A stretch of DNA of 23,094 nucleotides from a virus. Of the stretch, positions 1-22,518 are shown one piece after another (position 1 is the stretch's first letter; each line of letters opens with the position of its first letter). A program made the position numbers and the translations under genes. The stretch is from IMG/VR virus record IMGVR_UViG_3300047174_000264, positions 1 to 23,094 of that record, one strand, 5' to 3'. The notes beneath the pieces are model-generated. The model was not told the DNA's origin. It was given only the letters and a program-made list of their open reading frames with translations, and did not search any database.

Positions 1-413
1 CCCGCGCGATTGAACTCCGTGCCATCGACGTTGCGGAAATGCGTGAATCGATACCACGGTAGTGACGGCAAGATGCGCACGAAGAGCGCGTTGACGTACT
101 GTATGTTCTTCATCTGCAAGACGATGGTGTCGCTGCCCGTACCATCGATAAACTCGCTGATTCGGCAGTAGTCCATCGGGAATCGCAGCGCCTTAACCAC
201 GCGTGCGGTCGCCTCGGGAATCACGTCGCTCAGGAGCATCGCATTGAACGACGTGAGCGTGCCGTCGGGGTCCTGAAACTTGCTGAGATCGGTTCCGAGC
301 AGCAGTCCCATGATGCGCGACACGTTCGTGTGCGGCCTCGGCTGGTCGTCGTCGAAGCGATAGAAACGCGGCGGTATCACCGGAGCCACGGAAACGCCGT
401 TCATGTGCGCCAT
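1..413 (-). CDS. Unassigned phage protein after the capsid gene (partial)
   Basis: The frame is open from an ATG at 413 to the left edge, giving 137 residues with the C-terminus missing. It begins MAHMNGVSVAPVIPPRFYRF; an in-frame stop lies a few codons upstream, so the start is at 413 or at the next ATG at 404. Neither has a convincing Shine-Dalgarno sequence. I recognise no domain and see no signal peptide or membrane segment. The gene lies just downstream of the major capsid gene, separated by a strong hairpin, where head-completion, connector or tail genes usually lie, so a structural role is likely by position only. The overlapping open frame at 193-438 is a frame shadow of this gene. 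Confidence 0.6.
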   Translation of the reverse strand, partial: MAHMNGVSVAPVIPPRFYRFDDDQPRPHTNVSRIMGLLLGTDLSKFQDPDGTLTSFNAMLLSDVIPEATARVVKALRFPMDYCRISEFIDGTGSDTIVLQMKNIQYVNALFVRILPSLPWYRFTHFRNVDGTEFNRA

Positions 414-4273: not shown

Positions 4274-4663
4274 CTAACCTAGTCGATCCCTAGCATCATA
4301 AAGCAAAGGACCATGAAGCGCGTGCTCCGGCTTGCTCGGACGAAAGATTCCAATGCGCGAACGCATTTCACCTTCAGGTGTCTCTCGCATTGTGTTGGCA
4401 TAGCTTATCGTATCTGAATAAGGCGAGCCGGGATAGGTTTCGAAAACGTGCTCGCTTCGATGACCTAGGTGATCGACATCGTCGCCGACGCGATGATAAC
4501 GCGCGGGCGCGACGCCGCCGTTCTGATGCGAGACGACCATCACGTCGTCTTGATCGTTGAGGTCCTTGGGTTCGATCTCGCCATATCCGTGCGCCTCGAG
4601 CGCCTTCGCTTCCGCGATAGCATCGGGGTGAGCATCATAGATTGTGGCTTCCGATAACCTCAT
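4274..4663 (-). CDS. Unassigned 129-aa protein coupled to the giant gene
   Basis: The ATG at 4663-4661 overlaps the TGA of the 1718-aa gene (ATGA), with GGGGAG about 11 bases upstream; the frame ends at a TAG at 4274. The open frame extends further upstream, but that part lies inside the giant gene. The product is acidic at first (ATIYDAHPDAIAEAKALEAH, DLNDQDDVMVV) and His-rich in the middle (RYHRVGDDVDHLGHRSEH). No domain, signal or membrane segment is visible. It could be a partner or chaperone of the giant protein, but nothing beyond the overlap supports that. Confidence 0.7.
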   Translation of the reverse strand: MRLSEATIYDAHPDAIAEAKALEAHGYGEIEPKDLNDQDDVMVVSHQNGGVAPARYHRVGDDVDHLGHRSEHVFETYPGSPYSDTISYANTMRETPEGEMRSRIGIFRPSKPEHALHGPLLYDARDRLG

Positions 4664-7600
4664 GAGGCAGCAAGCTCCCCTTGGGCCGCGCGGCGACGCG
4701 TCTCCGGGTCGGCGTTCTGCGTCGCCCAGCCGTGATCGCGCGAGAAGTCTAGCCGCATGACGCCATCCGGGTCGGTCATCGCCGAGCGGAAGGCGGCGAT
4801 GTGCTCTTTGCTCGGCGTCCACGTCGGAGGCACCCACTGATGCCAACCTTCGCGCGTCATCGGAACGAGAAGCGGCTCATCATCGCCCGCGAGCGGCTTG
4901 ATGACGTCGCTTGCGGCCTGCATCGCCTTGATCATTTTCCGCCAATGCTCTTTGTAGGCGGCCGTCGGCGTGTGATCCCCACCGGGCGTCACGAATTGCC
5001 CCTTCGCGTGAATCTCACTGCGCGGCGCGAGCGTGTATTCGGTGTCGCCGTTATCCTGAATGACGTGTTCCATCTCGCCAGCATACAGGCTGTTCGTTGG
5101 GGAGTTGACGCCGTGCCAGATTTCCTCGGGTCGAACGAGACGATGCAACTGCGCGCCGCTATCGAAGCCGATAGCATAGGGTGCGTATCCGGCGAGCGTC
5201 ATCTCGGTCGCCTTAATCTTCTCGCCCTTGCGACCCTCGGCCAGCGCGTGTGCCGCGGTCTTGCCCATCATCGACGATGCTGCATCTTCCTGAATGCCGC
5301 GCGCGAATGGAATCGTTCCGTTCTCGTCGACCGTGCGCTCGAAGCTCGCGTGCGTGATCGCCTTGTGAAGAAGAAGCGCTTTAAGGAATCCGGGCGTGAT
5401 CTCTTGCGAGAGTTTGTTTGCGTGAGTGATCGCTTCCATGCCCGTCTTTCCAGGCTTGACGTTCTCCCACGGTGGCCGACCGCGTAGCATATTGCTCGCG
5501 ACGCGCATCTTGAAACACGTATCGTTTTGCGTGCTTGCGGCCCACGTCGAAAGGGTACTGTCGACTTCTTGTTCGTCCGTCGGCGAGATTCCGAGCTTTT
5601 GCGCGATAGCGTTAAAGATCGCGCGCGTGACGCCGCCCGCTTTGCCTTTCACTTTACCATCGTTTTCGTAGCCGACTTTGTTGCTCTTTTGCATATCACG
5701 AATGACCTGCTCGGATGGCATTGCGGCTCGCGCAGCCTCGAGCATCGGCTTATAGAGATTCTGCGACATCCGATACGCGTGCTGCGATGCGAATGCGACG
5801 CCGCCCGGAGGAAGCGAGCCGTGCGGATCGGCGTGCGCTTCGGGATCGCCTTTGTCGAGCGCCTCTTGGTGTGCTTTGATGAGTGGCTCGATAACGTCGG
5901 CCGCTTTCTTAAACGCGGCTTGCCCAATGGCTTTAACTGTCGTCGAGCCAGGCGGCACGTCGAGGTGCGTGAGATCGTGCACGCGACCATCGGAGCCCGT
6001 GATCGATTCGCGTTGCGGCGTAAGGGCGTTCGGGTGCGCGCTCGTGCGGCCTTTATCCGGAGATACCGAAACCGCCGTCGTCGCGCTGTTTACATGATAC
6101 GGAAGCTCGCTCGTGTGCGGCGTTTCAGGTCCGAGTGCGTCGGGTCGAAGAAAATCCGGATGCGCGTTTGATGGAATCGCAGGCGGAGTGATCGTACCCG
6201 CGGGGACGAACCTATTATGCTGCGGATTCGCGGCCTCTTTGCGCTGCGCATAGTAATCGTGCAACCACTTCGCCGAATCGGCGTTGCCCATGTAGCCCGC
6301 GTTATCTTTCGCTTCTTGAATCGCGGCGGCTTGCTCTTCGGGCGTTTCGGCGTGCAGCATCGCGGGCGTCATGCCCTCGGGTAGAACGCGATGGTGATTG
6401 AGGACGCGGTTCATCACTTCGTGCGGACGCAGAAATGGGCTCGGCAGTTTATCGACCGCTCCAAGAAAGAGGCCCTGAATGTTCGCTTGTGGGTGCGCTG
6501 GTTCGGCATTTATATTCGCGTAGTGTGCTTGAAGAAATGCTGCGCTCTCCGGATTGATCGCGGCGATGCGTTTGACGGCTTGATCCTGCGACTCGTGGCT
6601 ATCGGTATCCGTATTCGTGCGAACGAGGTCTTTCGGCGTCACGCCCTCGGGGAGCAGATGCTTGTTCTTGAGCATGAGCGCGAGCGGCGTCTTCGACGTG
6701 AGCGGATTCGCGCCGCCGTGCTTCTCCATGAAAGCCTTGTCGAATTGACCACCCGTTCCGCTTCCGTCGTTCGCCTCGCGGGTCGAGAAGTGCATGACGT
6801 ACTGCGGCACGCCGGGGAGCTTGACGGGCTTCGCGCTGTAACTTTTGCCGAAGTGCTTCCACGCTGCTGCGACGCGCTCTGCTGATGCTTTCGATAGCGG
6901 GGTCACGGCGAGATAATGAAGATAGTCAGGGTCTTTCTCGAACGCTTGAAGGTATAGCATTCCGCCCTTCGGCCCGAACTTGCCGATTTTCGTGATCATG
7001 CGTTTAACGTCACGTTGCCCGTACGCACCGATAGGCTTGAAGTCACCGTTCAGAAAGAGCGGACCGAGATGATCGTTATTCGGTCCTTCCGGTGCCGTCG
7101 ACTGATGAATGCCGGGCGTGAGCGCGAGCGCTTGCGCGACGTGCTTCGAGTGCACGCCGTGGAGCGATAGGGTGCCCATATCCCCGTCGCCGAGCGAAGA
7201 GTCTTCGGACGGAGCTACGGTCGAATCGATACCTGCATCCTTGAACGCACCGTGAAGCGCCTCTTGAGCCGACGCGGGGATCGATGCACCGTTAAACGCT
7301 GCCGCAATTTGTGGATTCTTCACGGCCTGAGCCGCTACCAAGTTCGCATACTGCTGAAGATGATTGCTGAAGACGCCTTGATCCTGTGCAATCTTCGCGA
7401 GCTTACTGACCTGTTGCGTAACCCACGAATGATGCACGGCTTGTGGCGTGAAGACTGAGTAATCGAGGTTGGCCTTTGCTGCTGCCGCTTTTGCTTTTGG
7501 CGTCAGCGGAGCCGCCGTCTTGATCGGCTTTTCGATGTACGGATTGTCTTCGGCTTTCGGAACCTGCGCATTCGGATCGGGCTGCGCGACGACAGTGCCG

Positions 7601-9816
7601 TAATTGCCCTTGACGACTTTGATGCCACCTGCGGTCGCCGCTGCTTTGTACGGTTGTCCGGTAAGATGCGTGAGGATCGAAGCCATCTTAATTGCGGGCC
7701 ACGCATTCGTCCATTTTTTCTGCGCGAGCGCGACGAGCGTGGCGGCGCTCGACGTTGCAGCCTTCGCGAACGCGTGCTCGTCGTTGGTTCCGATAGCGAC
7801 GTAAACCGAATCCGGAATAGACGACGCGTACGATGGGGAGGCCGCCAGCGCGAGCTTCGCAACGTTCGCGATGTGCGGGTCTTGGTTGACGCCAGCGAGC
7901 AGAGCGTCGCCGACCGGAGGGGCGGGTATGCCCGTCTTTTCAGGCTCGGCTGGCGTGATCGATGACGCAAGCGCCATCGCATTCGCTTGCTGCTCGGGGG
8001 TCTTGAGCTTCGGAATCGCCCACTTGAGCGCGGCCTTGATGCGGCCGTTAATCATATCCGCGTGCTCGACCGCATCCTTGCCCGTGAATCCGGCGTCCGC
8101 GACAATCTTCGCGACGTCTTCCGGCTTGACGGTCTGCGCGACGTGTACGGCCTGGTCCGCGACGGTCTGATCGCTAAGACCCTGGAATATCTTGCCTGCG
8201 CCGAACTTCGCATCGCGCATCGTGTCGAGTTCCGGCACGGCGTCTTTCGAGTAGTTGCTCTTAAGAGCGCCCTGCGCGCGATACTTCAGCGCGCCGCCGT
8301 TATCGAGTCGGTGAGCCTGCCCATCGGGCGTGAACATGATGTTGTCATGCGTGAGCCCGACGACGTCGTGATTCGCGAGGATCGCGTCGGCGGCGAAACC
8401 ACTCATGATCTGCGGATGTGCGGCGAGGTTGAATGTGCTGTCAGACGTGACGCCGCCCGTGTTCTGCTTGCCGTTCTCGATGAGCGGCGAGAAGATCGCC
8501 TTCTTGCCATTGATCGTAACGAGGCGCGAATCGGGCGCATTGATGCCGAGTTTTTTGTAAACTTGGTTCGCCATGAACTCGGTCTGCATTTGCTCGACGT
8601 TGCTGTAGAATTTCGCGTAGCCTTTGGTGCCATCGTCGAGTTCGAAGAAGCCGCCGGGATTCGTACCGCCGACCTTTTTTCCAGCGATAGGCGTCGCTTC
8701 GACATTCTCCCATGCCTCGGCTGTGGTCGGCTCGGGCGCTTTCGCTTGCGCCTCTTCCGATTGCGGCAGCGGTTCGCCAGGCGCGGGGATGATCGACGCG
8801 GGCTCGGCAGGTGCGTCAGGAGCCGCGGGCGGCTGGTAGCTCGGCGCTCCGGTGCCATTGAAGTTCGGTGGCGACCACAGCGACGACGGGACGGCACCCT
8901 TGACTTGCTTGACCTTCTTGCCGTGCTGCGCGAACGTCTTGCCCGTCATGAGGTGCAGGAACGCCGCCGCCGACTTCGCCTCGAGCGACGTGCTATGTTC
9001 CATCGCTTTGAGTGCCAGCAGTGATTGCGGATTTTGCAGCGCTAACTTACGCGCACTCGCGACGTCGCCCGTCTCGAGCGCAACGTGAATGCCGTGCGCG
9101 TCGGAAACCGCGTTCGCCGCAGCGATAGTTCCGGGTTGCGGCTTCTCGACCGCGTCGAGATCGACGAGCTTCGGAGCGCCGACGGGTTTCGGCTGCGGCG
9201 TGACGTTGTTCTGCGCCGCGATAGCCGAGAGCGGGTTTTCTTTCGGGACGCCGCCTTCGAATTTAACGTAGTTTCCGAACTGCGACCACGTGCCATCCGT
9301 CGCCGCGTTCAAGAATGCAGCGGCAATCTTCGCCTGCTTCTCGGAACTGTATTCCTCCGCGGCGATGCCGAAGAGAATTTCAGGATTCGCGTGCACGAGC
9401 TTCTTTGCCGCGTAAATCTCGCCGTTCGCGAAGTGCTGCTTGACTTGCTCGGTGCCCGCAACGCACGCCTGAACGTTCGAGGGCGGCTTGAGCGCAGCGC
9501 TTACCGGAAGATAGCCACTGTGCGGCGCTCCGGTCGCGCTATCGAGTGCGGGATGATCGTCGGAAATGCCGTGCTGCGCCGATGCGCCCATCCAACCCGG
9601 CTCGTTCTCCCAACCAGCCTTCGGGTTCGACGGAGGATCGACCGGACCGTCATTCTCTTGATCGCTTGCAGCGAACGCCCCATGCGAAAAACCCGACGTC
9701 CACTTTCCGAATTCATCGCGGGGTTGCTGCTCCCACCATTTTTCGTACTTGCGGAGATCATTCGAGATCGGCGCGGTGAGCTTCGTGAGTGCACGAAAGC
9801 TCTCGAGCGTCGTCAC
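4660..9816 (-). CDS. Giant modular virion-locus protein, kinase-like and ART-like modules
   Basis: This 1718-residue protein starts with a GTG overlapping the previous stop (GTGA). Residues 31-42 carry the phage linker motif PRDEFGKWTSG. A helical repeat occurs three times (around 130-180, 245-300 and 675-735; for example HANPEILFGIAAEEY and LQNPQSLLALKAMEH). Between copies two and three, about 375-560 resemble the PI3/4-kinase and HipA fold: candidate Lys402 (GYAKFYS), a catalytic-loop-like NHDVVGLTHDN (Asp491, Asn492) and a metal-binding-like RLDNGG (Asp505). A second repeat with LPEGVTP / LPEGMTP is centred near 1057 and 1147. Near the C-terminus, FARGI (Arg1506) and GEMEHVI (Glu1581, Glu1583) resemble the R...ExE pattern of ADP-ribosyltransferases, although the usual STS is not clear. 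No membrane segment is seen. It may be an internal or ejected virion effector. The gene call is secure; domain functions are tentative. Confidence 0.9.
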   Translation of the reverse strand: MTTLESFRALTKLTAPISNDLRKYEKWWEQQPRDEFGKWTSGFSHGAFAASDQENDGPVDPPSNPKAGWENEPGWMGASAQHGISDDHPALDSATGAPHSGYLPVSAALKPPSNVQACVAGTEQVKQHFANGEIYAAKKLVHANPEILFGIAAEEYSSEKQAKIAAAFLNAATDGTWSQFGNYVKFEGGVPKENPLSAIAAQNNVTPQPKPVGAPKLVDLDAVEKPQPGTIAAANAVSDAHGIHVALETGDVASARKLALQNPQSLLALKAMEHSTSLEAKSAAAFLHLMTGKTFAQHGKKVKQVKGAVPSSLWSPPNFNGTGAPSYQPPAAPDAPAEPASIIPAPGEPLPQSEEAQAKAPEPTTAEAWENVEATPIAGKKVGGTNPGGFFELDDGTKGYAKFYSNVEQMQTEFMANQVYKKLGINAPDSRLVTINGKKAIFSPLIENGKQNTGGVTSDSTFNLAAHPQIMSGFAADAILANHDVVGLTHDNIMFTPDGQAHRLDNGGALKYRAQGALKSNYSKDAVPELDTMRDAKFGAGKIFQGLSDQTVADQAVHVAQTVKPEDVAKIVADAGFTGKDAVEHADMINGRIKAALKWAIPKLKTPEQQANAMALASSITPAEPEKTGIPAPPVGDALLAGVNQDPHIANVAKLALAASPSYASSIPDSVYVAIGTNDEHAFAKAATSSAATLVALAQKKWTNAWPAIKMASILTHLTGQPYKAAATAGGIKVVKGNYGTVVAQPDPNAQVPKAEDNPYIEKPIKTAAPLTPKAKAAAAKANLDYSVFTPQAVHHSWVTQQVSKLAKIAQDQGVFSNHLQQYANLVAAQAVKNPQIAAAFNGASIPASAQEALHGAFKDAGIDSTVAPSEDSSLGDGDMGTLSLHGVHSKHVAQALALTPGIHQSTAPEGPNNDHLGPLFLNGDFKPIGAYGQRDVKRMITKIGKFGPKGGMLYLQAFEKDPDYLHYLAVTPLSKASAERVAAAWKHFGKSYSAKPVKLPGVPQYVMHFSTREANDGSGTGGQFDKAFMEKHGGANPLTSKTPLALMLKNKHLLPEGVTPKDLVRTNTDTDSHESQDQAVKRIAAINPESAAFLQAHYANINAEPAHPQANIQGLFLGAVDKLPSPFLRPHEVMNRVLNHHRVLPEGMTPAMLHAETPEEQAAAIQEAKDNAGYMGNADSAKWLHDYYAQRKEAANPQHNRFVPAGTITPPAIPSNAHPDFLRPDALGPETPHTSELPYHVNSATTAVSVSPDKGRTSAHPNALTPQRESITGSDGRVHDLTHLDVPPGSTTVKAIGQAAFKKAADVIEPLIKAHQEALDKGDPEAHADPHGSLPPGGVAFASQHAYRMSQNLYKPMLEAARAAMPSEQVIRDMQKSNKVGYENDGKVKGKAGGVTRAIFNAIAQKLGISPTDEQEVDSTLSTWAASTQNDTCFKMRVASNMLRGRPPWENVKPGKTGMEAITHANKLSQEITPGFLKALLLHKAITHASFERTVDENGTIPFARGIQEDAASSMMGKTAAHALAEGRKGEKIKATEMTLAGYAPYAIGFDSGAQLHRLVRPEEIWHGVNSPTNSLYAGEMEHVIQDNGDTEYTLAPRSEIHAKGQFVTPGGDHTPTAAYKEHWRKMIKAMQAASDVIKPLAGDDEPLLVPMTREGWHQWVPPTWTPSKEHIAAFRSAMTDPDGVMRLDFSRDHGWATQNADPETRRRAAQGELAAS

Positions 9817-16794: not shown

Positions 16795-16823
16795 TTGACT
16801 TATTCTGCGCGCTAGGCTAACGT
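16795..16823 (+). promoter_or_regulatory. Sigma70-like promoter of the DUF932 gene
   Basis: TTGACT (16795-16800, five of six consensus bases) is followed after exactly 17 bases by TAACGT (16818-16823, weak -10). The expected start site is near 16830, at the first base of the GCGGC hairpin. It lies in the 88-base divergent gap between the leftward structural block and DUF932. I found no clear promoter for the leftward genes there. Confidence 0.5.
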
Positions 16824-16829
16824 GGTGGA

Positions 16830-16845
16830 GCGGCGCTTTTGCCGC
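16830..16845 (+). promoter_or_regulatory. 5' leader hairpin of the DUF932 transcript
   Basis: GCGGC (16830-16834) and GCCGC (16841-16845) form a 5-bp stem with a 6-base loop at the predicted 5' end of the RNA. A GAAAGG ribosome-binding site follows at 16852-16857. The same order (GCGGC, loop, GCCGC, GAAAG, start) is found in the two leaders at 22.1-22.3 kb. Confidence 0.4.
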
Positions 16846-16863: not shown

Positions 16864-17964
16864 ATGTACGCACTCCAGGACCAGACCGTCCGTAAAGTCG
16901 TCGCCATCGCGACAGAAGAGAACGGGGGCAAAGGCCCCATCCCGAATTACGTGCCCAGCCTCGATCTCAACGAGATTCTCGCAACCGAGCGCGAGCGCGC
17001 CGCAAAGCGAGTCGACGGCATCTTCGAACTCGGCGGCCTTCGCTTCGTCGAAGCCGGACCCAAAGACATCGCGCTCACGGGCGACTACGACGCTCTGCGC
17101 CAACCGAAGACCCTCAACGCGACGGCCGAGTACCATGTCGCGCAGAAGGTCGGCGTTCCCGCTCCATTCTTCTCGAAGTGCTCGTCCGACCTGAAGCTCC
17201 GCATCCTCGCGGAGCACGGCAAGAACCTCGAGGGCAAGCGCGTCACGAAGACCATCGATGGCGAGAAAGTCGAAGTCGAGAAGGCGGCTCTGATCCGCAT
17301 CGACCACGACGGCCGCGTTCGCGCGATGCTCTCGCCGAGCTATACGATTTCGGACAACCTTCCGCTCATCGAGGCGAGCATCAAGCTCCTCAATACGGGC
17401 GGCGCGACGGCCGCGTACCTCAACATCGGCGACAACCTCATGAACGGCCGCCTGCTCTTCCCGAGCAAGGAACAGACCCTCGGCAACGGTGATCGCTTGG
17501 TGCCGGGCGTGCAGATTCGTAACTCCGAAGTCGGCCTTTCAAGCTACGCGTGGGAAACGGCCCTCTTCCGGGTGCAATGCTGGAACGGCCTCATCTCCGC
17601 CGACGGCTCGATGGGCGGCATCTTACTGCGCCACACGGGCAAGGCGAACCAAGACCTCTTCTCTCGGCTCGACGAGGCCATGAACTCGATCATCGCCGCA
17701 CAGCCGCGCCTCATGCAGCGCGTGTCGCGCGCGACCGAGATCGTGGTCGACGACGGCGAGGAGTTCATCCGCAACGGCGTGTCTCGCTACGGCGTGCCGA
17801 AGAACATGATCGACACGCTCATCGAAGAGGCGCGCGTGACCGAGGCGAAGACGGCCTACGACTACCTCAATGTGCTCACGGCGACGGCCCAGGGCAAGGG
17901 GATCGACCAGCGCATCGCCATCGAGCGGTCCGCAGGCAAATGGCTGGCGGGCCTCAAAAACTAG
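16864..17964 (+). CDS. DUF932 family phage/plasmid protein
   Basis: The 366-residue protein resembles the DUF932 (phage/plasmid-like TIGR03299) family in length and in segments such as VPAPFFSKC, RAMLSPSYTISDN, RNSEVGLSSYAWETALFRVQ and WNGLISADG, with a basic, helical C-terminus. The family is common in phages and plasmids; its function is not established, though a DNA-associated early role is often assumed. The ATG at 16864 has AAAGG eight bases upstream; a longer frame from a GTG at 16822 would start upstream of the predicted transcription start. The gene stands alone between its own promoter and a strong terminator, so it is probably expressed independently and strongly. Confidence 0.85.
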   Translation: MYALQDQTVRKVVAIATEENGGKGPIPNYVPSLDLNEILATERERAAKRVDGIFELGGLRFVEAGPKDIALTGDYDALRQPKTLNATAEYHVAQKVGVPAPFFSKCSSDLKLRILAEHGKNLEGKRVTKTIDGEKVEVEKAALIRIDHDGRVRAMLSPSYTISDNLPLIEASIKLLNTGGATAAYLNIGDNLMNGRLLFPSKEQTLGNGDRLVPGVQIRNSEVGLSSYAWETALFRVQCWNGLISADGSMGGILLRHTGKANQDLFSRLDEAMNSIIAAQPRLMQRVSRATEIVVDDGEEFIRNGVSRYGVPKNMIDTLIEEARVTEAKTAYDYLNVLTATAQGKGIDQRIAIERSAGKWLAGLKN

Positions 17965-18026: not shown

Positions 18027-18071
18027 TGTAGCCACGACCTATTGCATTTCTTGCGCGGACCTAGGTATACT
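18027..18071 (+). promoter_or_regulatory. Promoter with duplicated upstream element, leaderless start
   Basis: A 22-base element (18027-18048; TGTAGCCACGACC followed by TATTGCATT) recurs with one change at 22192-22213. It includes the -35 TTGCAT (18042-18047). An 18-base spacer leads to TATACT (18066-18071; five of six consensus bases). A start six bases further falls on the A of the ATG at 18078, so the transcript should be leaderless. The conserved block upstream of the -35 may be an activator or repressor site. Confidence 0.7.
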
Positions 18072-18077
18072 AAGATC

Positions 18078-18473
18078 ATGAGCAACGCGAATCCCGCCTC
18101 CTACGAGGACTCAATCCAATACCCGGTGACGCCCATGTGTCACACGAACCGCACCCTCACGTTCGAGCTTCCCGCGACGGTCTACGTCGATGGTCGGCCC
18201 GCGGACGTGCCGGATGGCGCGAAGCTCATGCTCTCGTGCCCGGATTGCGGCACCGTCTACGTGGCGACGAACAAAGGCCTCGAGCTTCGTGCTCGCAAGG
18301 TCGAGGGCAACGATCTCGAGGGCGCATTTGCGAAACTGCGCATGGCGCTGGGATCGTGGCCGACCGGAACGACGACGAACCACGACGGCGAGTCGATCTG
18401 CTCGAAGTGCTGCTCGCTTGATCTGCGCACGGACGGCGAGAACGTCGTGTGCGGGGAGTGCGGCCACTCGTAA
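18078..18473 (+). CDS. Zinc-ribbon protein, first gene of rightward operon
   Basis: The 131-residue product starts MSNANPASYED at an ATG that coincides with the predicted transcription start; no Shine-Dalgarno is present. The frame is open much further upstream, but that part overlaps DUF932 and is shadow sequence. It holds CPDCGTVY in the middle and CSKCCS ... CGECGHS at the C-terminus, suggesting two zinc-binding knuckles. The segment between them is helical. Such proteins can bind nucleic acid or other proteins; no specific function is evident. The stop overlaps the next start (TAATG), so downstream genes are probably translationally coupled. Confidence 0.75.
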   Translation: MSNANPASYEDSIQYPVTPMCHTNRTLTFELPATVYVDGRPADVPDGAKLMLSCPDCGTVYVATNKGLELRARKVEGNDLEGAFAKLRMALGSWPTGTTTNHDGESICSKCCSLDLRTDGENVVCGECGHS

Positions 18474-19912: not shown

Positions 19913-20109
19913 GAAAGTGCAACGATTGCGGCACGACCAAGCCGCCCAAAGCGTGGAACGGCCAGCGCTGGATGCTCGATGACGTCTTCGAGAAAGACCC
20001 GTCGCGATACGTGTGGATTTGCGCCGACGGCATCTCGTGCGTGCAACGGATGAAGCAGAAGGAAGCCGAAGTTCTGGAGGTGCTCGGTGGAACCGCGGCC
20101 CTTAACTGA
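19909..20109 (+). CDS. Small Cys-rich protein
   Basis: The GTG at 19909 overlaps the TGA of the previous gene by four bases (GTGA). The 66-residue product begins RKCNDCGTTKPPKAW and later has WICADGISC, giving Cys4, Cys7, Cys38 and Cys44, a likely zinc site. It ends in a short charged helix that overlaps the next gene by 23 bases. No function is known; phages commonly encode small zinc-ribbon proteins of this kind. Confidence 0.65.
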   Translation: MRKCNDCGTTKPPKAWNGQRWMLDDVFEKDPSRYVWICADGISCVQRMKQKEAEVLEVLGGTAALN

Positions 20110-20431
20110 CGACGAAAAGGCGGCTATTCGGTCGAGTTATCACGCGCAGTGCAAGGCGACCGAAGCGATTCTTTCAACGTGGTCAGACTCTGATCTGCGT
20201 GACGTGATCGAGACTCACTTCTGGCGCACGGAAGACGCCATCGAATTCATCGTGCAAGAGGAACTCGTGCTCGATGATCTCGACACCTACTTCGATTTCG
20301 ATGCCTATCCCGAGCACTACGTGGCGCTTGTAAAGGCCGGGATCATCAAGGATGTCGCGCCGCCACCATCGCCGACCGTGAGCGCAGCGGACATGGAAGG
20401 CCAGCCTAAACTGATCGAGGACGCGCCATGA
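20087..20431 (+). CDS. Unassigned 114-aa acidic protein
   Basis: The GTG at 20087 has GGAGG six bases upstream, and the stop overlaps the next ATG (ATGA). The product is acidic and largely helical (TDDEKAAIRSSYHAQCKATE, DVIETHFWRTEDAIEFIVQE, ELVLDDLDTYFDFDAYPEHY) with a Pro-rich hinge near 90. No domain is recognised. Strong negative charge is a feature of some phage anti-defence or DNA-mimic proteins, but this is only a note on composition. Confidence 0.7.
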   Translation: MEPRPLTDDEKAAIRSSYHAQCKATEAILSTWSDSDLRDVIETHFWRTEDAIEFIVQEELVLDDLDTYFDFDAYPEHYVALVKAGIIKDVAPPPSPTVSAADMEGQPKLIEDAP

Positions 20432-20595
20432 GTTGGCTATCTCCACCGATTCCGGACGAGTTCGAAGACGCCGTCGACCGCATGATTTACGCTCGTGGTC
20501 GCGCGGACGCGTGGCGCAAGTGCGTCTACATCGTCGGCTTCGAAGTGTTCATCATCCTCGCGGTGATCGTCACCAACGCGTTCCGACACTGCTAG
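20428..20595 (+). CDS. Small 55-aa membrane protein
   Basis: The ATG at 20428 overlaps the previous TGA (ATGA). The 55-residue product starts MSWLSPPIPDEFEDAVD and has one hydrophobic segment at about 32-52 (VYIVGFEVFIILAVIVTNAF), so it is probably a single-pass membrane protein. It is the last gene of the rightward operon. Its TAG (20593-20595) lies in a CTAG that also provides the stop of the convergent minus-strand gene. Confidence 0.6.
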   Translation: MSWLSPPIPDEFEDAVDRMIYARGRADAWRKCVYIVGFEVFIILAVIVTNAFRHC

Positions 20596-21582: not shown

Positions 21583-21803
21583 GGCAGCCTCCGCCCGTAC
21601 CACGTTGAGAACTTGTCGCGTTCGCTCTGGGTGGGCTCTTCCGGCGGGTCCCAATAGCCCGGCGGCCGATTCTCGTCAGCGCTCGCGGCCAGCGCCGCAA
21701 AGGCGCAGCACCCGCCGAGAGCGATGAGGATCGAGCCGACCGAGACGCCGCCCTGGGTGTGAAAGAAGAGATCGTGAAGAGCCTGAGCCGCGGTGATCGT
21801 CAT
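21579..21803 (-). CDS. Small 74-aa membrane protein
   Basis: The ATG at 21803 overlaps the TGA of the previous gene (ATGA). The product has one hydrophobic segment at about 19-41 (VSVGSILIALGGCCAFAALA) and a Pro-rich cytoplasmic or periplasmic tail (ENRPPGYWDPPEEPTQSE). It is probably a single-pass inner-membrane protein. The function is unknown. Confidence 0.65.
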   Translation of the reverse strand: MTITAAQALHDLFFHTQGGVSVGSILIALGGCCAFAALAASADENRPPGYWDPPEEPTQSERDKFSTWYGRRLP

Positions 21804-22117
21804 TTCGACACCTGACGCGCGCCCTGCACGCGGCCGAGGGTCTGGCCGAAGAGAAACGCGGCTGCGGCGAAGGCGCTCGACCCGAAGCGAATCGTGCCCG
21901 AGTCCATCTTGATGTCGACGTTGTAGAGCGAGAACTCGCCAGGTCCCTTACGTTGGAACGTCGCGACGACGTCTTCGCCGAGAAGCTCGAAGGTGTGCGT
22001 GAAGCCTTTCGTTCCGTCGACCGGACCGTCAGCCTTGCTGCTGATGATGATCGAAGCGATTTCGCGGATGGCCTCGTGGGCGATTCCGTCTTTGGGGCGC
22101 TCGGAGAGCATGATCAT
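21800..22117 (-). CDS. Unassigned 105-aa protein, first gene of leftward operon
   Basis: The first ATG is at 22117 and a second, in frame, at 22111. Upstream lies the AGAAAG leader (22132-22127) shared with the divergent gene at 22282. The product is mixed alpha/beta: a helical N-terminus (GIAHEAIREIASIIISSK), strands (GFTHTFELLGEDVVATFQR, EFSLYNVDIKMDSGTIRFG) and a hydrophobic Ala/Phe-rich stretch (SSAFAAAAFLFGQTLG). I recognise no family. Being promoter-proximal, it is probably the most abundant product of the leftward operon. Confidence 0.7.
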   Translation of the reverse strand: MIMLSERPKDGIAHEAIREIASIIISSKADGPVDGTKGFTHTFELLGEDVVATFQRKGPGEFSLYNVDIKMDSGTIRFGSSAFAAAAFLFGQTLGRVQGARQVSK

Positions 22118-22157
22118 GGATGGTCACTTTCTGCGGCTCGCGCCGCGGCGTAGGAGT

Positions 22158-22190
22158 ACCTTACCATAGGCGCGCTGCAAATGCAAGCAA
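22158..22190 (-). promoter_or_regulatory. Leftward promoter of the 22117-20592 operon
   Basis: On the minus strand, TTGCTT (22190-22185) and TATGGT (22168-22163) are 16 bases apart. Alternatively TTGCAT (22186-22181) and TAAGGT (22163-22158) are 17 bases apart. Either choice gives a start near 22152-22156, a few bases before the leader hairpin. The two possibilities cannot be separated by eye. Confidence 0.5.
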
Positions 22191-22191
22191 A

Positions 22192-22235
22192 TGTAGCCAC
22201 AACCTATTGCATTCTTCATTCGGATGGTGTACCAT
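22192..22235 (+). promoter_or_regulatory. Rightward promoter with duplicated upstream element
   Basis: The 22-base element at 22192-22213 matches the one at 18027-18048 with one change (A for G). It contains the -35 TTGCAT (22207-22212), which is followed after 17 bases by TACCAT (22230-22235). A partial palindrome, ATGG/CCAT, overlaps the -10 and may be an operator. The start should be near 22242, ahead of the GCGGC/GCCGC hairpin. Confidence 0.65.
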
Positions 22236-22281
22236 CGGTTTACAAGTCGCGGCCACGAGCCGCAGAAAGCGACCAACACAA

Positions 22282-22518
22282 ATGAGCGCCTACACCAACT
22301 CCGCAAACGTGAAGATCGAAGCCGAAAACTACCTGAGAGCGTACAGCGATGCGCGCCAGCCGCAGAAAATGGCAGCGACCTCGGCGATGTCCGACGCTCA
22401 GGCCGAGATGGTCTTCGACCAGACGACCAAGGCGAACTTCCTCATGAACGTCGCGAAGTTCATCGTCATGATGGAAGCCGACGAGGTGAACGCCGTCGTG
22501 GTCGGAACGCGGACGTGA
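22282..22518 (+). CDS. Unassigned 78-aa protein, first gene of second rightward operon
   Basis: The ATG at 22282 follows the shared AGAAAG leader; the Shine-Dalgarno match is weak. The product is helical (NSANVKIEAENYLRAYSDAR, MSDAQAEMVFDQTTKANFLM) with a short C-terminal strand (NAVVVGTRT). The frame extends upstream to 22120, but that part covers the promoter region. The stop overlaps the next GTG (GTGA). No function is recognised. Confidence 0.65.
   Translation: MSAYTNSANVKIEAENYLRAYSDARQPQKMAATSAMSDAQAEMVFDQTTKANFLMNVAKFIVMMEADEVNAVVVGTRT

What the first reader, a model, noticed from the sequence alone, without database searches (positions are those of the whole stretch)
22121..22275. 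Divergent operons carry mirror-image hairpin leaders
A 20-base inverted repeat with one mismatch gives both the leftward and rightward transcript a GCGGC-loop-GCCGC hairpin followed by AGAAAG and GACCA just before the start codon. Because this falls in the RNA leaders, it may be a translational control or stability element duplicated onto both sides, or a DNA-binding pair controlling the divergent promoters.
Basis: seen in the sequence. Interest (0 to 1): 0.6.

Follow-up and report, generated by a model that had tools for sequence, protein, structure and literature searches.

The report
Hairpin abutting the ribosome site
In this uncultured phage, the two messages read outward from one control region probably each begin with the same small RNA hairpin pressed against the ribosome-binding site; the same kind of start cassette recurs in many unrelated phages, where its base pairing is conserved, so it is most likely a portable device for protecting and starting phage messages.

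Summary
In detail: 20-nt arms 22121-22140 and 22256-22275 are 95% complementary. It is the only such pair within 350 bp in the record; shuffles give 0.04 in the whole window. Each arm holds the 3' half of a GCGGC-loop-GCCGC hairpin plus the start-proximal AGAAAG. Both hairpins lie 11-13 nt downstream of a sigma70-like promoter, so they should sit at or near the RNA 5' ends. A third leader, before the DUF932 gene (16830-16845), has the same stem.

A collection scan found more than 120 phage stretches with GCGGC-loop-GCCGC-AGAAAG-start codon. In those phages, genes that did not bring the contig in also carry hairpins abutting the Shine-Dalgarno-like sequence (58 against about 20 per 5-nt bin). 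One-step stem variants were compensated nine times and broken never. One phage repeats the module about 14 times. Rfam has no match.

Best reading: an RNA leader hairpin that protects the 5' end and keeps the ribosome site open. It is less likely to be a DNA operator pair. The function is inferred from known 5' stem-loops (T7 gene 10, ompA); nothing was measured. Host unknown.

The parts
22121..22140 (-). left arm of the 20-nt inverted repeat (3' half of left hairpin + AGAAAG + TGACCA)
22256..22275 (+). right arm of the 20-nt inverted repeat (3' half of right hairpin + AGAAAG + CGACCA)
22133..22146 (-). left leader hairpin GCGGC-GCGA-GCCGC, -9.2 kcal/mol as RNA
22127..22132 (-). AGAAAG, presumed Shine-Dalgarno-like sequence, directly abutting the left stem
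   Evidence: sequence; role inferred
22249..22263 (+). right leader hairpin GCGGC-CACGA-GCCGC, -7.8 kcal/mol as RNA
22264..22269 (+). AGAAAG, presumed Shine-Dalgarno-like sequence, directly abutting the right stem
   Evidence: sequence; role inferred
22158..22186 (-). left promoter-like site TTGCAT-17-TAAGGT, 11 nt upstream of the left hairpin (TTGCTT-16-TATGGT overlaps)
   Evidence: consensus match only
22207..22235 (+). right promoter-like site TTGCAT-17-TACCAT, 13 nt upstream of the right hairpin
   Evidence: consensus match only
22194..22206 (+). TAGCCACAACCTA upstream of the right -35 and between the divergent promoters; repeated at 18029-18041; candidate regulator or upstream element
21800..22117 (-). 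first gene of the leftward operon, 105 aa, no family match
22282..22518 (+). first gene of the rightward operon, 78 aa, no family match
16795..16823 (+). promoter-like site TTGACT-17-TAACGT of the DUF932 gene
16830..16845 (+). third leader hairpin GCGGC-GCTTTT-GCCGC, 6 nt after the -10, followed by CTCTAC-GAAAGG and ATG 16864
16864..17964 (+). DUF932 gene (366 aa) served by the third leader

Best explanation
The finding is a pair of 5'-leader RNA hairpins. Host-type RNA polymerase starts leftward and rightward transcripts from two divergent sigma70-like promoters, and each RNA is predicted to begin, within a few nucleotides, with a stem GCGGC/GCCGC that ends exactly at the Shine-Dalgarno-like AGAAAG, 9-12 nt before the start codon. 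The hairpin most likely acts in cis as a 5' cap-like clamp: it leaves almost no single-stranded 5' end for pyrophosphohydrolase or 5'-end-sensing RNases, and it keeps the ribosome site out of other pairings, so these phage messages are long-lived and well translated. The same cassette serves a third transcript of this phage (DUF932) and recurs in unrelated phages. Shown: the repeat, the hairpins, their place between promoter-like sites and start codons, their recurrence and the conserved pairing in other phages. Inferred: transcript starts, 5'-end protection, translational benefit, and that AGAAAG is the working ribosome site.
For: Hairpins and repeat. TTG-16..18-TANNNT promoter geometry 4-15 nt upstream: 3 of 3 leaders here; 8 of 96 distinct leaders elsewhere against 0.46 in shuffles (maximum 3 in 300), and 1 against 0.47 at 16-27 nt. 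Third leader with the same stem and a 6-nt loop. Unrelated phage contig L064: TTGACG-17-TAACGT-12 nt-GCGGC-CGA-GCCGC-AGAAAG-6 nt-ATG. At other genes of those contigs, GC-rich hairpins are enriched 0-4 nt before the Shine-Dalgarno-like sequence (58 against 14-31 in the other bins, the L158 contig family left out), with no such peak in unselected phage loci or bacterial loci. One-step stem variants: 9 compensated in 6 contigs, 0 broken, 0 wobble; shifted controls 2, 0, 0 compensated. One contig repeats the module about 14 times, alternating GCGGC-ACA-GCCGC and GCGGG-RCAAT-CCCGC. Precedent: a T7 gene 10 stem-loop placed upstream of the SD raised reporter expression 1.5- to 3-fold in Cupriavidus (PMC6146998), and 5' hairpins stabilise mRNA in E. 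coli and Bacillus (review PMC3997798).
Against: No transcript start, RNA half-life or translation was measured. The promoters are weak consensus matches (7-8 of 12; the stricter scan found none in the region). AGAAAG is a weak Shine-Dalgarno sequence. Folding z-scores of the whole leaders are modest (-0.9 to -1.9). No diverged homologue of this very locus was found, so conservation of pairing is shown in other phages, not at this site. Most leaders elsewhere lack a recognisable sigma70 promoter, so a position at the extreme 5' end is not general. In many phages, as in most of the 20 records, the strict motif occurs only once.
Confidence: 0.62

Rival explanations
1. The two arms are DNA operators: one regulator binds both, just downstream of the two starts, and represses or loops the divergent promoters together.
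For: Mirror-image placement around a divergent promoter region; each hairpin is also a DNA palindrome; the arms share AGAAAGYGACCA beyond the stem.
Against: Half-site spacing varies (4, 5, 6 bp) in the three leaders; in other phages the palindrome abuts the Shine-Dalgarno-like sequence and changes only in compensated fashion; a separate repeated promoter element is a better operator candidate.
Confidence: 0.12
2. The hairpins are RNA sites for a phage protein or for the polymerase itself, as with nutL/nutR boxB or HK022 put sites, so that both early operons are controlled together by antitermination or by translational repression.
For: One hairpin on each of two divergent transcripts close to the promoters is the layout of nut and put sites (general knowledge); the left loop GCGA is a GNRA tetraloop; shared CGA loop ends and AGAAAGYGACCA could be a recognition sequence.
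Against: Loops differ (GCGA, CACGA, GCTTTT here; CGA, ACA, AGGA, AAGAA elsewhere), no boxA-like sequence was seen, and the fixed feature is contact with the Shine-Dalgarno-like sequence rather than a loop.
Confidence: 0.14
3. The repeat is a recent local inversion-duplication of a promoter-leader segment with no selected function of its own.
For: The two arms share sequence beyond the stem; both promoters have TTGCAT-17.
Against: The sequences between promoter and hairpin are unlike each other, the loop differs by an indel, a third leader elsewhere has the same stem, and unrelated phages have the same cassette.
Confidence: 0.07
4. Chance GC-rich palindromes in a 61% GC genome.
For: Six GCGGC-N3..8-GCCGC palindromes occur in the window, three of them in coding sequence.
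Against: The three others are exactly in the leaders of three promoter-led genes; the inverted repeat is unexpected (0.04 per window).
Confidence: 0.05

Closest known systems
Phage T7 gene 10 (phi10) leader stem-loop
   Same: Hairpin at the 5' end of a phage message upstream of the Shine-Dalgarno sequence; shown to raise expression when transplanted (PMC6146998).
   Different: T7 polymerase promoter, different stem; as recalled, the T7 stem lies farther from the Shine-Dalgarno sequence, while here it abuts it directly.
5'-terminal stabilising stem-loops of bacterial mRNAs (ompA, papA, aprE)
   Same: Short stable 5' hairpin that shields an mRNA from decay that starts at the 5' end (review PMC3997798).
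   Different: Known cases are single cellular genes; this is a recurrent cassette with one preferred stem used by unrelated phages. No stability was measured here.
Lambda nutL/nutR boxB hairpins and HK022 put sites (from general knowledge)
   Same: Hairpins on both divergent early transcripts.
   Different: No boxA-like partner seen, variable loop, fixed contact with the Shine-Dalgarno-like sequence, also present before non-divergent genes.
Rfam cis-regulatory leader families
   Same: A conserved short structure upstream of genes.
   Different: No Rfam family matched the window; in three other phage loci only sub-threshold chance matches appeared.

Membership tests
5'-terminal mRNA-stabilising stem-loop | stem-loop close to the RNA 5' end | tested here: inconclusive
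   Predicted only: hairpins start 6-13 nt after the -10 hexamer; no mapped start
5'-terminal mRNA-stabilising stem-loop | pairing, not sequence, is conserved | tested here: met
   9 compensated against 0 broken one-step variants in other phages; not testable at this locus, no diverged homologue
5'-terminal mRNA-stabilising stem-loop | lengthens mRNA half-life | not testable with these tools
   needs RNA decay measurement
DNA operator pair | fixed half-site spacing across sites | tested here: not met
   4, 5 and 6 bp between GCGGC and GCCGC in the three leaders
nut/put antitermination site | boxA-like sequence next to the hairpin | tested here: inconclusive
   none seen by eye in 22121-22282; no dedicated scan was run
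nut/put antitermination site | conserved loop recognised by a phage protein | tested here: not met
   loops differ in length and sequence
intrinsic terminator | GC stem followed by a U-run | tested here: not met
   stems are followed by AGAAAG; scan found none at the hairpins
known Rfam family | score above gathering threshold | tested here: not met

The most novel reading that the evidence does not exclude
A portable phage translation-start cassette exists: a GC hairpin, preferentially GCGGC/GCCGC, that ends exactly at the Shine-Dalgarno sequence, kept by selection on pairing and shared by unrelated phages, perhaps because the stem stacks on the Shine-Dalgarno/anti-Shine-Dalgarno helix and so favours phage messages on host ribosomes.
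Probability: 0.25. Interest if true: 0.68.

Novelty: new variant of a known kind. Interest (0 to 1): 0.47.

Why it matters
Leader hairpins are known from single model phages. Here one geometry, a stem touching the Shine-Dalgarno sequence with a preferred stem, recurs across unrelated uncultured phages and shows compensatory change. If it holds, it is an annotation landmark for gene starts and promoters in phage dark matter, a candidate Rfam family, and a ready-made expression part. It also makes a direct test possible of whether contact between a 5' hairpin and the Shine-Dalgarno helix matters.

Tried and rejected
Searches for relatives of the two flanking genes, the portal, the capsid and DUF932 gave only one near-identical contig (12 mismatches in 9,967 bp) that does not reach the divergent region, so no covariation could be tested at the site itself. 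The exact 18-mer AGCCGCAGAAAGYGACCA matched only coding sequence of unrelated contigs. The 14-mer of the finding gave 120 mostly coding chance hits, with L064 the one clear leader among them. My crude gene caller misjudged many evident leaders and was not used for counts. A strict sigma70 score found few promoters before leaders elsewhere; the TTG/TANNNT geometry test, chosen afterwards, is the one reported (one search was a failed script). BLAST of short leaders against named phages gave only chance-level matches; the two inspected are not this leader. The literature searches found no description of this element, which in an open-access library is weak evidence of absence.

Full report
What is there. 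The window is one whole virus record of 23,094 bases, a fragment of an uncultured tailed phage: major head protein, head maturation protease, minor head protein and portal on the minus strand, PAPS-reductase-like and DUF932 genes diverging at 16.8 kb, and near the right end a divergent region between a 105-aa gene (21800-22117, minus) and a 78-aa gene (22282-22518, plus), neither with a known family. The inverted repeat is as described, and shuffles give 0.04 such pairs per window.

Anatomy. Read as RNA, the leftward leader is UACGCC-GCGGC-GCGA-GCCGC-AGAAAG-UGACCAUCC-AUG and the rightward one AAGUC-GCGGC-CACGA-GCCGC-AGAAAG-CGACCAACACAA-AUG. The 20-nt repeat is the 3' half of each hairpin plus the sequence down to GACCA; the 5' halves also match but are shifted by a one-base difference in the loop. 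Upstream of each stand TTGCAT-17-TAAGGT (11 nt before the hairpin) and TTGCAT-17-TACCAT (13 nt before it). If transcription starts about 7 nt after the -10 hexamer, the hairpins begin at about +5 and +7.

A third leader. The DUF932 gene, also promoter-led, has TTGACT-17-TAACGT, six bases, GCGGC-GCTTTT-GCCGC, CTCTAC-GAAAGG and ATG 16864. Of six GCGGC-N3..8-GCCGC palindromes in the record, three are in coding sequence and three are these leaders. A fourth promoter-like site (18042-18071) has no room for a leader: its start codon lies six bases after the -10 hexamer, so that RNA would be leaderless.

Recurrence elsewhere. Among hits of the 14-mer, contig L064, an unrelated phage with terminase- and capsid-like proteins (read from the translations, not profile-searched), has TTGACG-17-TAACGT-12 nt-GCGGC-CGA-GCCGC-AGAAAG-CACAAC-ATG. 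Several contigs have two to five copies. In 20 whole records the pattern read backwards occurs zero times, against 29 forward; 20 of those 29 brought the records in.

Independent tests in those phages. Because the hits were chosen for the hairpin, I left them out and looked at other start sites of the same contigs. GC-rich 5-bp hairpins ending 0-4 nt before a Shine-Dalgarno-like sequence number 58, against 14-31 in every more distant 5-nt bin, with the richest contig family removed; unselected phage loci and bacterial loci show no such peak. These counts include overlapping registers of the same hairpin, in all bins. Stems one change away from GCGGC/GCCGC directly before a Shine-Dalgarno-like sequence were compensated nine times (six contigs) and broken never; controls shifted by 15, 25 and 35 nt gave 2, 0 and 0 compensated. 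One or two of the nine may be chance, and four come from one phage. That phage (IMGVR 3300018050_001860, 75 kb) repeats, about 13-14 times in the roughly 16 kb held here (a related contig, L247, has one more), a module of a larger hairpin, a short TTAGGG-like spacer, the small hairpin and AGAAAGG-ATG, with the small stem alternating between GCGGC and GCGGG forms.

Mechanism. Pairing is conserved, the loop is free, the stem ends exactly at the Shine-Dalgarno-like sequence, and where a sigma70-like promoter can be recognised it stands 4-15 nt upstream (8 of 96 against 0.46). This fits a leader hairpin that closes the 5' end and keeps the ribosome site open. A T7 gene 10 stem-loop placed before the SD raised expression 1.5- to 3-fold in Cupriavidus (PMC6146998), and 5' hairpins protect mRNAs (PMC3997798). 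In phages where the cassette lies between genes behind a larger hairpin (11 of 96 with a perfect stem of at least 7 upstream against 1.3 in shuffles), processing between the two hairpins would give the same protected 5' end; this is conjecture.

Regulation of the divergent pair. A shared element TAGCCAC[AG]ACCTA lies directly before TTGCAT at 22194-22206 and 18029-18041 and, for the left promoter, upstream in reverse. It was found in no other viral contig except the near-identical one. It is a better candidate than the hairpins for a regulator site.

Limits. Nothing was measured; the host is unknown; the near-identical contig does not cover the divergent region; all collection scans were capped, so frequencies across phages and bacteria are not known. 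I rate the element a new variant of a known kind (phage and bacterial 5' leader hairpins), not a new kind.

Noticed in passing
18029-18080: Promoter-like site TTGCAT-18-TATACT whose predicted start coincides with ATG 18078, so the cysteine-rich (zinc-ribbon-like) protein there may be made from a leaderless mRNA.
   Followed up: partly
22194-22206 and 18029-18041: Shared TAGCCAC[AG]ACCTATTGCATT element in front of two promoters; absent from all other viral contigs scanned except a near-identical one.
   Followed up: partly
17011-17032 and 20457-20478 (approximate): A second inverted repeat of about 22 nt with at most one mismatch per 20 nt, arms in coding sequence 3.4 kb apart.
   Followed up: no
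22353-22371: A partial third copy of the arm (GCGCCAGCCGCAGAAAATG) inside the first rightward gene, out of frame.
   Followed up: no
4660-9816 (minus): A 1,718-aa open reading frame in the head-gene region without any PHROG match.
   Followed up: no
L158 and L186 (contig IMGVR_UViG_3300018050_001860): A repeated intergenic module CCCGCTCCCGAATCCCGAAAACTGGAGCGGGGTTAGGG + small hairpin + AGAAAGG + ATG before about 14 genes, all on one strand.
   Followed up: partly
20185-20286: Nine of the 12 differences from the near-identical contig L125 are clustered in one gene (20087-20431).
   Followed up: no
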